Positions 51,943 to 58,864 of a DNA stretch of 64,000 nucleotides are shown here, one piece after another. The notes below the pieces were generated by a model. The model had not been told where the DNA came from and did no database searches. It saw only the letters and a list, made by a program, of their open reading frames with translations. Both the position numbers and the translations under genes were made by a program. Source of the DNA: Acidipropionibacterium virtanenii (lineage in GTDB: Bacteria; Actinomycetota; Actinomycetes; Propionibacteriales; Propionibacteriaceae); assembly GCF_003325455.1 (NCBI RefSeq), contig NZ_CP025198.1, positions 868,001 to 932,000 on the forward strand. The letters run 5' to 3'. The first letter of the stretch is position 1; each line of letters opens with the position of its first letter.

Positions 51943-52197
51943 GTGAGCGAGCCCTGGCTGTCCACGGACGAGATCGCGGCCCACCTCGGCGTCACCAAAG
52001 ACACCGTGTATGCGTGGATCGCCGACAAGGGCATGCCCGCCCACAAGATCGGGCGCCTGTGGAAGTGCCAAGCCACCGAGGTCGACGAGTGGGTGCGCAC
52101 CGGCGCCGCAGCCAGCGACAGCCCGCACACTCATGACGGTGGTGGCCCCTACCCTGAGCAGGCAGGCACCCAGTCGAAACGGAAGGAGGGGCGATGA
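51943..52197 (+). CDS. Excisionase-like helix-turn-helix protein
   Basis: 84 residues; a winged HTH of the MerR/excisionase type fills residues 3-52 (WLSTDEIAAHLGVTKDTVYA, WIADKGMPAHKIGRLWKCQA, TEVDEWV), with a polar tail. AAGGAGG lies 6 nt before GTG 51943. Its stop overlaps the methyltransferase start by 4 nt, so it is the first cistron of that operon and more likely its regulator (like a C protein) than the element's Xis, though Xis is possible. Same-strand with the restriction-like genes and divergent from araC. Confidence 0.82.
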   Translation: MSEPWLSTDEIAAHLGVTKDTVYAWIADKGMPAHKIGRLWKCQATEVDEWVRTGAAASDSPHTHDGGGPYPEQAGTQSKRKEGR

Positions 52198-52850
52198 GCG
52201 CCAACGAGACCGAACGCTTGGTCAAGTCCAAGCAGCGCGTCGCCGACCACGGCGAAGTCTTCACCCCCTCCTGGATGGTCGAGGACATGCTCAACCTCGT
52301 CCAGGAAGAATCCGAACGCATCGATTCCCGGGTGCTGGAGCCGGCGTGCGGGTCGGGGAACTTCCTCGTGCCCGTCCTGACCCGCAAGCTCCTGACTGTG
52401 GCCGCCAAGCATGGCAAGAGTGACTTCGAGAAGCGCCACTACGCGCTGTTCGCATTGATGTGCACGTACGGCATTGAACTCCTGCCCGACAATGCCGCCG
52501 AGTGCCGCAGTAACCTCGCCACCCTGTTCAACGCGTTCCTCGGCATCGACCAGGACACCGACGACTGGGCTCGCGCCGCCCGGGCGGTGCTGGAGGTGAA
52601 CATTGTCCAGGGTGACGCTCTCACGATGACCACTCCGAGTGGTGGGCCGATCACGTTCGCCGAATGGGGGTACCTGGGGAAAGGGAAGTTCCAGCGCCGC
52701 GACTTCCGCTACGACGAGCTGACTCAGCGCTCCGCCTGGGAGGCCGAGGGGTCTCTGTTCGCCGACATGGGAGCCGACCTCTTCGCCCCTCAGACGACGT
52801 ACCCGACGATGTCGGTGGCGGACCTGGCCGGGCAGGTGAATGCCGCATGA
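52194..52850 (+). CDS. Gamma-type N6-adenine methyltransferase, AdoMet-binding part
   Basis: 218 residues. It has the motif X/I region of gamma-class methyltransferases: HGEVFTPSWMVEDML and LEPACGSGNFLVPVL (residues 48-62). After that GIELLPDNAAECRSNLATLF and NIVQGDAL follow, but the catalytic NPPY-type motif IV is absent: the expected place reads DALTMTTPSGGPITFAEWGY. It therefore probably works with the next gene product, which has NPPY. ATG 52194 has GGAGGGG just upstream, overlaps the HTH stop, and its own stop overlaps the next start (ATGA). Alternatively it is a small type-IIG remnant. Confidence 0.8.
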   Translation: MSANETERLVKSKQRVADHGEVFTPSWMVEDMLNLVQEESERIDSRVLEPACGSGNFLVPVLTRKLLTVAAKHGKSDFEKRHYALFALMCTYGIELLPDNAAECRSNLATLFNAFLGIDQDTDDWARAARAVLEVNIVQGDALTMTTPSGGPITFAEWGYLGKGKFQRRDFRYDELTQRSAWEAEGSLFADMGADLFAPQTTYPTMSVADLAGQVNAA

Positions 52851-57050: not shown

Positions 57051-57088
57051 CTGTCCCACCCGACGGCCGTATCGAAAGGTTCCGCTCC

Positions 57089-58864
57089 ATGTCGTTCCAG
57101 ACGCCGCGCAGCATCGAGGAGATGCTCACCGCGATCCACAAGCGCGAGTACCTGCTGCCCGCGATACAGCGAGAGTTCGTCTGGAACTCCGACCAGATAG
57201 CCAAGCTGGTGGACAGCCTGATGCGCGGCTACCCGGTCGGGTCGTTCCTCCTGTGGAATGTGGAGCCGGAGACTGCCCAGTCCTACACGTTCTACGAGTT
57301 CCTCACCAACTATCACGAGCGCGACAACCCGTACGCAGACAAGGCCACGGTCCCTACAGGGAGCGGAACAACGGCCGTTCTGGACGGGCAGCAGCGGCTC
57401 ACCGCGTTGAACATCGCCCTGTACGGCAGCTACGCGGAGAAGAAGAAGTACGCGTGGTGGAACAGCGTCGACGCGTTCCCCACTAAGCGGCTCTACCTCA
57501 ACCTCACCGACGACCCCGACGATGAGGAACTGGGCCTCAAGTACGACCTGCGCTTCCTCACCGACAAGGAGGCCGCCGCAGAGGACGGAGCAGAGGACAA
57601 GTGGTACCGGGTCGGCGCCGTCCTCGGCCTCGATGACTCCGGTCCGGCCATCATGGATGAGGTCGCCGAGCGAGGGATTTCGGACTACCGGACGGCGGCC
57701 CGTCGTCTCTACGACCTCTACCGCGCCGTACGCGACTTGAAACCGATGAACTACTTCCTGGTGACCGACCAAGATGCCGACAAGGTGCTGGAGATCTTCG
57801 TCCGCGTCAACAGCGGCGGCACGACGCTGTCCTACTCCGATCTGTTGCTGTCGATGGCCACCAACCAGTGGCAAGAACTCGACGCACGCGAGGAGGTCCG
57901 GTCCTTGGTCGCTGAACTCAACTCCAGTGCGGGACGCCAGTTCTCCTTTTCCAAGGACGTCGTACTCAAGACCGCGCTGACGGTTGCAGGCGTGGACGTC
58001 CAGTTCAAGGTCAAGAACTTCACTCAAACGAACATGGCGAAGGTCGAGGCGGCGTGGCCCGAGACCAAAGGGGCCCTGCTCCGCGCAGCAAGTTTGCTCC
58101 AGCAGTTCGGCTTCAACGAGCGCAACCTCACCGCGAACAGCGTCATCATCCCGATGGCCTACTACCTCTACCTGCGCGGCGCCGGTGACTCCTACCTCGA
58201 CTCCACAGCCGACGCCGTCGACCGGCTCACGTTGCAACGCTGGGTCACACGCTCGCTCATCAAGCGCGGCGTCTGGGGGTCCGGGCTCGATACGCTCCTC
58301 ACACGCCTCCGAGACGTCCTCCGCACGAACTCCACCAGCAGGTTCCCCATCGAAGCAGTCGAGACTGCAATGGCTGCCGTGGGCAAGGGACTCGTTTTCG
58401 ACGATGCCGAGATCGACGAACTTCTCAACCTCAAGTACGGCGGGCAGCGCACCTTCGCGGTGCTCTCCGTCCTCTACCCAGGACTGGACCTGGGTAAGAA
58501 GTTCCACGAGGACCACATCTTCCCGAAGTCACGGTTCACGCGAAAGCGTCTCGCGGCGGCCGGTGTGCCTGCCGACCAGATCGACGACTACCTGAACTCG
58601 GTGAACCTCATGCCGAACCTCCAGCTCCTTGCGGGCACCGCCAACATCGAGAAGCAGGATGCGCTCCCAGCGCAGTGGATCGAGGCTGCCTTCCCGACAT
58701 CCGAGAAGCGAGCGACCTACATCGCCGAGAATGATCTGGACAACCTCCCCTTGGACCTGGAGGGATTCCCGGTGTTCTTCGCCCAGCGCAAGCAGCGCAT
58801 CCGAACCCGGCTCGTCACAGCGCTCGGAACGACGAGCCAAGCAGAAAGCGCACATCAGAGCTGA
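57089..58864 (+). CDS. DUF262 plus HNH (GmrSD-like) nuclease
   Basis: 591 residues. N-terminal DUF262: LLPAIQREFVWNSDQIAKLV, DSLMRGYPVGSFLLW, and the nucleotide-dependent VLDGQQRLTAL (98-108); IFVRVNSGGTTLSYSDLLLS is also typical. C-terminal DUF1524-type HNH: FHEDHIFPKSRF (472-483) and NLMPNLQLLAG. This is the arrangement of GmrSD/BrxU/SspE-type enzymes that cut modified or unmodified foreign DNA under nucleotide control. Last gene of the HTH-methyltransferase-helicase operon. AAAGG lies 9 nt before ATG 57089. Confidence 0.88.
   Translation: MSFQTPRSIEEMLTAIHKREYLLPAIQREFVWNSDQIAKLVDSLMRGYPVGSFLLWNVEPETAQSYTFYEFLTNYHERDNPYADKATVPTGSGTTAVLDGQQRLTALNIALYGSYAEKKKYAWWNSVDAFPTKRLYLNLTDDPDDEELGLKYDLRFLTDKEAAAEDGAEDKWYRVGAVLGLDDSGPAIMDEVAERGISDYRTAARRLYDLYRAVRDLKPMNYFLVTDQDADKVLEIFVRVNSGGTTLSYSDLLLSMATNQWQELDAREEVRSLVAELNSSAGRQFSFSKDVVLKTALTVAGVDVQFKVKNFTQTNMAKVEAAWPETKGALLRAASLLQQFGFNERNLTANSVIIPMAYYLYLRGAGDSYLDSTADAVDRLTLQRWVTRSLIKRGVWGSGLDTLLTRLRDVLRTNSTSRFPIEAVETAMAAVGKGLVFDDAEIDELLNLKYGGQRTFAVLSVLYPGLDLGKKFHEDHIFPKSRFTRKRLAAAGVPADQIDDYLNSVNLMPNLQLLAGTANIEKQDALPAQWIEAAFPTSEKRATYIAENDLDNLPLDLEGFPVFFAQRKQRIRTRLVTALGTTSQAESAHQS

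What the first reader, a model, noticed from the sequence alone, without database searches (positions are those of the whole stretch)
51943..58864. Five-gene HTH / split methyltransferase / GIY-YIG-helicase / DUF262-HNH operon as candidate defence system
Sequence: the first four genes overlap (4, 4 and 8 nt) and the fifth follows by 38 bp, all on one strand, between the maintenance operon and the relaxase of a conjugative element. Knowledge: gamma methyltransferases, SF2 translocases with nucleases and DUF262/HNH enzymes are each restriction components. Inference: modification (genes 2-3) protects host DNA, the nuclease-helicase cuts unmodified DNA, and DUF262-HNH adds a second, perhaps modification-sensing, cut. 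I do not recognise this set as one of the named systems (BREX, DISARM, Hma, Ssp).
Basis: partly seen in the sequence, partly recalled or inferred. Interest (0 to 1): 0.85.

Follow-up and report, generated by a model that had tools for sequence, protein, structure and literature searches.

The report
DrdVI-type restriction operon with BrxU
The five genes are a known but little-studied bacterial DNA-restriction system (the DrdVI "split methylase" kind) joined to a second known enzyme that cuts chemically modified phage DNA, and relatives in phages hint at how its divided methylating enzyme fits together.

Summary
The five-gene operon is real, intact and placed as described. It is not an unnamed system. 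Genes 2-3-4 match M1.DrdVI, M2.DrdVI and DrdVI of Deinococcus wulumuqiensis plasmid pDrdVI (59, 49 and 70% identity), a "split methylase" R-M system whose cloned methylases were assigned 6mA at GCAGCC. Gene 5 is HEC-05/BrxU, a type IV enzyme that cuts modified-cytosine DNA. Genes 2-3-4 recur as a unit across phyla; genes 1 and 5 are optional. Modification plus GIY-YIG/translocase restriction is supported, with gene 5 an independent second layer.

One thing I did not find in print: M1 has a canonical SAM site and no catalytic NPPY; M2 has NPPY but a degenerate SAM half, Lys replacing the first motif-I Gly in all 72 aligned rows that cover it. Two phage proteins fuse M1 to M2's catalytic/TRD half without M2's degenerate half; a third phage has the two as separate genes. 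This suggests M1 plus M2's C-half is the working methylase, and that M2's dead half, the best-conserved methylase part, serves something else, perhaps restriction. Untested: a model of M2 alone folds as a complete methylase, so the arrangement is unresolved.

The parts
51834..51866 (.). imperfect inverted repeat (10-nt arms, 90% complementary, 13 nt apart) upstream of g1; possible operator
   Evidence: short, function only guessed
51943..52197 (+). g1: 84-aa excisionase/MAD1-like helix-turn-helix protein, probably a regulator
   Evidence: TIGR01764 passes its cut-off; MADS1 model 67.5 bits, below its cut-off of 80
52194..52850 (+). g2 = M1: SAM-binding N-half of a gamma-class methyltransferase (motifs X, I, II, III; no NPPY)
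   Evidence: 58.5% to M1.DrdVI
52335..52367 (+). canonical SAM motif I of g2 (LEPACGSGNFL)
   Evidence: first Gly in 69 of 69 aligned M1 rows
52847..54493 (+). g3 = M2: Eco57I-type methyltransferase with NPPY and target-recognition region
   Evidence: 49.4% to M2.DrdVI; AF2 model resembles CamA, BrxX and M.TaqI
52847..53461 (+). M2N: degenerate SAM half of g3
   Evidence: most conserved part of the methylase, mean 71%
53054..53056 (+). Lys70 codon in degenerate motif I of g3 (LDPFTKSGVFL)
   Evidence: Lys in 72 of 73 rows, the remaining row a gap
53462..54490 (+). M2C: catalytic half (NPPY at 53528-53539) plus target-recognition region of g3
   Evidence: NPPY in 71 of 73 rows, 1 NPPD, 1 gap
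54486..57050 (+). g4 = R: N-terminal GIY-YIG (T5orf172) nuclease fused to an SF2 translocase
   Evidence: FGKT, DEYH, SGTP; 69.5% to the pDrdVI R protein
54543..54830 (+). T5orf172 domain of g4
   Evidence: 21.8 bits against a cut-off of 20
54873..56525 (+). SF2 translocase region of g4 (the ResIII match itself covers residues 130-286)
   Evidence: C-terminal limit approximate
57089..58864 (+). g5: GmrSD-family type IV enzyme (DUF262 + HNH), HEC-05/BrxU
   Evidence: HEC-05, E 3e-223; PDB 7p9k, E 4e-168; DGQQR at 99, HEDHIFP from 473

Best explanation
Two complementary DNA-restriction layers carried by a relaxase-bearing mobile element. Layer 1 (g2-g3-g4) is a DrdVI-type R-M system. M1 (SAM half) and M2 (catalytic half plus target recognition) together add N6-methyladenine to a short asymmetric site and so protect self DNA; R, a GIY-YIG nuclease fused to an SF2 translocase, acts on DNA whose sites are unmethylated. 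Layer 2 (g5) is a BrxU-type enzyme that cuts DNA with modified cytosines and so catches phages that escape layer 1 by base modification. g1 is probably a small regulator. Shown here: gene structure, homology, intact motifs, adjacency. Shown in print for relatives: 6mA methylation by M1-M2 of DrdVI and of MaeIV, and cleavage of modified DNA by BrxU. Inferred: recognition site, cleavage, translocation and complementary use in this strain.
For: Plasmid pDrdVI carries g2-g3-g4 homologues in the same order and strand, 58.5, 49.4 and 69.5% identical. PMC6430315 (whole text) lists M1-2.DrdVI, GCAGCC, 6mA, IIG, cloned in E. coli ER2796. [quoted passage not shown] PMC10113651 (passages) places M1-M2.MaeIV in the same split family, m6A GCACY. 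Target-recognition part least conserved (mean 42%), translocase most (78%), over up to 67 loci, as expected for R-M. All 8 sampled actinobacterial genomes, other than the window's, with an R of at least 46% identity carry M1, M2 and R side by side. g5; 7P9K is the BrxU structure; BrxU biochemistry in PMC8565348 (abstract and passages).
Against: No methylome of the carrier was available and no recognition site can be read from sequence. I saw no cleavage data for a DrdVI-type R protein in the passages read. GIY-YIG catalytic residues were not individually verified and the domain match is just above cut-off. Coordinated use of g5 with g2-g4 rests on adjacency; DUF262 enrichment near the core is not shown.
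Confidence: 0.9

Rival explanations
1. Within the R-M reading: M2 is a complete methyltransferase on its own, binds SAM with its variant Lys-containing motif I, and M1 is only an accessory or SAM-sensing subunit.
For: AF2 model of M2 alone (pLDDT 85.3, pTM 0.83) resembles whole gamma-MTases with TRD such as CamA (TM 0.55, rmsd 7.5 A), BrxX and M.TaqI. M2N is strongly conserved, so presumably functional.
Against: Lys replaces the first Gly of motif I in 72 of 73 M2 rows (1 gap) and the usual motif-II acid is missing in 71 of the 72 rows that cover it. M1 was found in 12 of 12 named plasmid or phage systems with a helicase that I fetched. Two phage proteins and one phage gene pair have M1 plus M2C without M2N.
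Confidence: 0.3
2. A genuinely new five-gene defence system in which all five products act together, including g5 sensing the modification made by g2-g3.
For: Tight operon. Of 295 sampled actinobacterial genomes besides the window's, one holds both R and a close g5, and there they are neighbours, divergently oriented. A DUF262 gene directly follows the fused helicase-methylase gene in an Enterococcus faecium plasmid, though it is only remotely like g5 (20 bits).
Against: g5-like sequence follows in only 8 of 64 loci. HEC-05/BrxU is reported to function independently and acts on modified cytosines, whereas DrdVI and MaeIV make 6mA. g5 relatives occur in 366 plasmid records, mostly Klebsiella and Escherichia (E 1e-50 or better), R relatives in 79, mostly Enterococcus and Lactococcus; I did not count their overlap.
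Confidence: 0.05
3. A MADS, BREX, DISARM, Hma or Ssp derivative.
For: g1 resembles MAD1 (67.5 bits) and g5 has weak SspE matches.
Against: MAD1 match below cut-off (80); MAD2 27.6 of 720; BREX_2_MTaseX 15.5 of 400. In the PADLOC rows shown (for g2, 25 of 31) no DISARM, Hma or Ssp core model is hit by g1-g4; for g5 the best SspE match is 25 bits against 741 for HEC-05.
Confidence: 0.02
4. A decayed or inactive R-M remnant carried by the element.
For: Relatives are often broken: a Tn3/IS region with aph genes between M2 and R on pCRULAC2, split R or g5 in several loci.
Against: In the window all five frames are open and the family motifs are present.
Confidence: 0.08

Closest known systems
DrdVI R-M system (Deinococcus wulumuqiensis NEB 479, pDrdVI; M1.DrdVI, M2.DrdVI, DrdVI), REBASE type IIG
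   Same: Same three genes, order and strand; 58.5, 49.4 and 69.5% identity.
   Different: M2 diverges most in its target-recognition part across the family, so the site may differ from GCAGCC; no DUF262 gene is annotated in the 12,980 of 15,514 bases of pDrdVI that I viewed.
MaeIV (Methanococcus aeolicus), GCACY
   Same: Called a split methylase family similar to DrdVI.
   Different: Its sequence was not fetched; no direct comparison made.
HEC-05 / BrxU (Escherichia fergusonii pEFER; PDB 7P9K)
   Same: g5 aligns over almost its whole length, 46.3% to E. fergusonii plasmid copies.
   Different: BrxU sits within a BREX locus; here the partner is a DrdVI-type R-M. Same logic of complementary layers.
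Type ISP enzymes LlaGI and LlaBIII
   Same: Translocase and gamma-MTase in one restriction machine; M2 model matches their MTase region at lower rank.
   Different: Separate chains here, a split methylase, and a GIY-YIG nuclease (type ISP nuclease is Mrr-like; recalled).
TgvAB embedded in a type I R-M operon (Vibrio cholerae)
   Same: GmrSD-family enzyme inside an R-M operon.
   Different: Two-protein system with type I R-M; g5 here is a single BrxU-type protein.

Membership tests
DrdVI-type split-methylase R-M | separate small M1 with SAM motifs and no NPPY | tested here: met
   (58.5% to M1.DrdVI)
DrdVI-type split-methylase R-M | M2 with NPPY and target-recognition region | tested here: met
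   (49.4% to M2.DrdVI)
DrdVI-type split-methylase R-M | R protein: GIY-YIG nuclease fused to translocase | tested here: met
   (69.5% to the pDrdVI R protein)
DrdVI-type split-methylase R-M | M1, M2 and R genes adjacent on one strand | tested here: met
   same in pDrdVI
DrdVI-type split-methylase R-M | 6mA at a short asymmetric site made by M1 plus M2 | not testable with these tools
   published for DrdVI and MaeIV; no methylome of the carrier
HEC-05 / BrxU | full-length match to HEC-05 model | tested here: met
   E 3e-223, residues 1-581 of 591
HEC-05 / BrxU | DGQQR and DHIYP-type HNH motifs | tested here: met
   DGQQR, DHIFP; motifs named in PMC8565348
HEC-05 / BrxU | cuts DNA with modified cytosine | not testable with these tools
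   needs enzyme assay
MADS | MAD1 and MAD2 models reach cut-off | tested here: not met
   67.5 of 80 and 27.6 of 720 bits
BREX | PglX/BrxX methyltransferase with PglZ and BrxC | tested here: not met
   BREX_2_MTaseX 15.5 of 400 bits; no PglZ or BrxC model in the PADLOC rows shown for g1-g5 (for g2, 25 of 31 rows shown)
Type ISP | nuclease, translocase, MTase and TRD in one chain with Mrr-like nuclease | tested here: not met
   separate chains, T5orf172 nuclease (the family's nuclease type is recalled)

The most novel reading that the evidence does not exclude
In DrdVI-type systems the methyltransferase is a composite made in trans: M1 supplies the SAM-binding half and M2's C-half (M2C) supplies NPPY and target recognition. 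M2's own N-half (M2N) is a conserved, SAM-dead copy that is not needed for methylation but couples the methylase to the translocase or holds it in check. Phages have turned the pair into a one-chain protective methylase by fusing M1 to M2C and discarding M2N, at least twice.
Probability: 0.4. Interest if true: 0.6.

Novelty: new member of a known kind. Interest (0 to 1): 0.4.

Why it matters
It files an apparently unknown operon under a named but thinly studied R-M kind. PADLOC recognised the pDrdVI M2 and R proteins only as pieces of one model and gave M1 no hit at the limit used, so such loci are easily mistaken for new systems. The motif division and the phage fusions give a concrete, cheap test of how a divided methyltransferase works and of why a dead SAM half is kept. 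The pairing with a BrxU-type enzyme repeats, with another partner, the published BREX plus BrxU logic of covering both unmodified and modified phages.

Tried and rejected
Lys in motif I as a sign of another cofactor (carboxy-SAM): not pursued, since the published products are reported as 6mA. DUF262 enrichment around the core: with a strict DGQQR pattern, 6 frames in about 477 kb within 3 kb of the core against 3 in about 616 kb at 3-9 kb, plus 1 embedded (4 duplicate or near-identical loci left out); too few to claim. Profile comparison of M1 with M2N by hhalign found no convincing match (shallow alignments); cross-matches of the two profiles in divergent members do occur. First alignments for the composite (A1, A3) put M1 rows on the wrong half and were not used. 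PADLOC names for 89 adjacent genes gave no dominant partner: no family matched more than 5 of 89, and the 24 that reached 5 are GmrSD-like models (25 of 165 families shown).
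Full report
OBSERVATION. The operon is as described: five + strand genes, overlaps of 4, 4 and 8 nt, then a 38-nt gap. Pfam assigns HTH_17, N6_Mtase, Eco57I, T5orf172 + ResIII and GmrSD_N. All frames are open. A TrwC relaxase follows, and ArdC-like, primase-polymerase and ParB-like genes lie upstream on the other strand.

WHAT GENES 2-4 ARE. A tblastn of g4 against plasmids led to pDrdVI of Deinococcus wulumuqiensis NEB 479, which carries the three genes in the same order. 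Identities are 58.5% (g2), 49.4% (g3) and 69.5% (g4). PMC6430315 (whole text read) lists on this plasmid M1-2.DrdVI, GCAGCC, 6mA, type IIG, with methylase genes cloned in E. coli. [quoted passage not shown] PMC10113651 (passages) adds M1-M2.MaeIV, GCACY. That the three pDrdVI genes fetched here are those named in these papers follows from the plasmid and the descriptions; the papers' locus tags were not compared. So the core is a named kind. PADLOC showed it only in pieces: g3 and g4 match different parts of one 1359-position IIG model, and the pDrdVI proteins behave alike.

WHAT GENE 5 IS. g5 matches HEC-05 over residues 1-581 of 591 (E 3e-223) and PDB 7p9k (E 4e-168), which PMC8565348 names as its BrxU structure. 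It keeps DGQQR and DHIFP. PMC11411939 (passages) equates HEC-05 with BrxU and says these function independently. PMC8565348 (abstract and passages) reports that BrxU degrades 5mC, 5hmC and glucosyl-5hmC DNA and not unmodified DNA, and lies within a BREX locus that it complements.

CORE VERSUS ACCESSORY. Of these 80 loci, M1 (200 bits or more) is present in 68 and M2 in 70 (recounted; weaker hits not counted). Of the 12 without M1, 9 are cut by the contig edge; L012, L017 and L085 are not, and L065 has M1 but no M2 hit. g5-like sequence follows in 8 of the 64 loci with at least 2 kb downstream: intact in L018, split in L011, remnants of 31-119 bits in L014-L017, L022 and L024; L014-L016 are near-identical. 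g1-like HTH genes stand upstream on the + strand in 5 of 80. In 296 actinobacterial genomes drawn without regard to the query (295 besides the window's own), R is found in 13, close g5 (E 1e-60 or better) in 4 and both in 1 (G117), where they are neighbours (g5 and M2 there are each flagged with an internal stop). All 8 genomes with R of at least 46% identity have M1, M2 and R adjacent; 5 further genomes have only more distant R matches. The five-gene set is therefore not a conserved unit; the three-gene set is.

EMBEDDED GENES. In a few loci another candidate defence gene sits between M1 and M2: a GmrSD + RAMA protein (L043), PDC-S02 (L050), PDC-S13 (L054), a Ppl-like AAA protein (L067) and a weak pAgo match (L083). 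Genes were called by a rough script, so this is not a census. DUF262 genes were only slightly denser near the core, which proves nothing.

THE SPLIT METHYLASE. Rows: 69 M1 and 73 M2, window included, 200 bits or more. M1 keeps motif X (HGEVFTP in 68, HGEMFTP in 1), the first Gly of motif I in 69 of 69, and YG[I/V]EL in 68. None of the 69 has a motif-IV tetrapeptide: the 14 xPPW matches are all the motif-X FTPPW. M2 has NPPY in 71 of 73 (1 NPPD, 1 gap), but Lys replaces the first Gly of motif I in 72 (1 gap), and the usual motif-II acid is missing in 71 of the 72 rows that cover it. Five divergent Firmicutes forms keep K-S/T-G; Arthrobacter does not (LFSTAG). Chain layout varies. Helicase and M2 are one chain in the Enterococcus, Staphylococcus, Paenisporosarcina and two lactobacillus plasmids fetched; in Arthrobacter the helicase chain ends with M2N and M2C is a separate gene; M1 is a separate chain in all of these, the Enterococcus M1 matching only weakly (16 bits). 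By contrast PMC4996451 reports a fragmented Bibersteinia gene similar to M1 at its N-terminus and M2 at its C-terminus.

NATURAL COMPOSITES. In viral contig L129 one 529-codon frame joins M1 (68% over 169 residues to g2) to M2C without M2N. No helicase match lies in the 15,185 bases held of that 35,155-base contig. Of 9 neighbouring frames scanned with PHROGs, the next gene downstream is a minor head protein, one is an HNH endonuclease, one is of unknown function and 6 gave nothing. From g3 residue 321 on, 142 of 224 aligned residues (63%) are identical, so it may protect against a system of similar specificity (inference). Fusobacterium phage FNU4 gene 28 joins an Enterococcus-type M1 (61% over 196 residues) to M2C, so it looks like a separate event. 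Tenacibaculum phage PTm1 has M2C (gp277) and M1 (gp279) as separate genes, with no M2N match in the 9 kb fetched. A tblastn of g4 gave no match at 1e-5 in either phage. In contrast phage PV036449 keeps all parts with its helicase. In the 296 actinobacterial genomes no one-chain M1-M2C was among the matches: M1 and M2C matched separately, so composites are rare.

STRUCTURE. The AF2 model of M2 alone (57-row alignment) has pLDDT 85.3 and pTM 0.83; the other four models average 77-78. Its best Foldseek hits are CamA (E 3e-15, TM 0.55, rmsd 7.5 A), BrxX and, further down, M.TaqI: M2N can fill the SAM-half position in the monomer, which speaks against the composite reading or requires a rearrangement. 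The composite (54 rows: 6 copies of itself, 29 M1, 19 full M2, so its N-half alignment mixes M1 with M2N) gives pLDDT 78.3, pTM 0.76 and the same relatives (CamA, TM 0.52, rmsd 11 A), but the junction with NPPY is poorly modelled. These models do not decide where M1 binds. Mean identity to the window over up to 67 loci: translocase 78%, M2N 71%, M1 64%, M2 catalytic part 62%, GIY-YIG 60%, target recognition 42%. A dead half more conserved than the live one is presumably doing something.

MECHANISM. Most likely (0.9): DrdVI-type modification and restriction plus a BrxU-type second layer. Within it, M1 + M2C as the working methylase with M2N as a restriction-linked module is my preferred but unproved reading (0.4). 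I found no description of this motif division in the library: searches, of which I opened only some papers; of the three DrdVI papers I saw one whole and passages of two. The library lacks most subscription journals, and REBASE was not available.

VERDICT. New member of a known kind, with an interesting mechanistic lead.

Noticed in passing
L129:5635-7224: Viral contig with a one-chain M1-M2C methylase whose target-recognition part resembles the window's; possible phage counter-defence.
   Followed up: partly
L154:4161-6050 and L153:4010-6442: Fusobacterium phage FNU4 M1-M2C fusion, and Tenacibaculum phage PTm1 M2C and M1 as separate genes, both without a match to M2's degenerate half.
   Followed up: partly
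L014:11684-17906 (similar arrangement in L015, L016, L017, L024): The g5-like gene downstream of R is split by a cassette with a Cad transporter, a signal peptidase II, a P-type ATPase and a pyridine-nucleotide oxidoreductase (only L014 scanned with Pfam).
   Followed up: partly
L043:5233-7389, L050:5405-6463, L054:5912-6763, L067:3392-6193, L083:5956-7323: Other candidate defence genes embedded between M1 and M2.
   Followed up: partly
window:49548-50648: ArdC-like (ArdcN + M78 peptidase) gene on the - strand close to the restriction operon; possible anti-restriction function of the same element.
   Followed up: no
window:51834-51866: Imperfect inverted repeat just upstream of the HTH gene, possible operator.
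   Followed up: no
L156:1500-5933: Large uncultured phage genome with an M1-like frame next to a 1256-aa frame ending in M2C but with a different N-terminal part.
   Followed up: no
L119:1736-12559: On Corynebacterium crudilactis pCRULAC2 a Tn3/IS region with aminoglycoside phosphotransferase genes lies between M2 and R.
   Followed up: no
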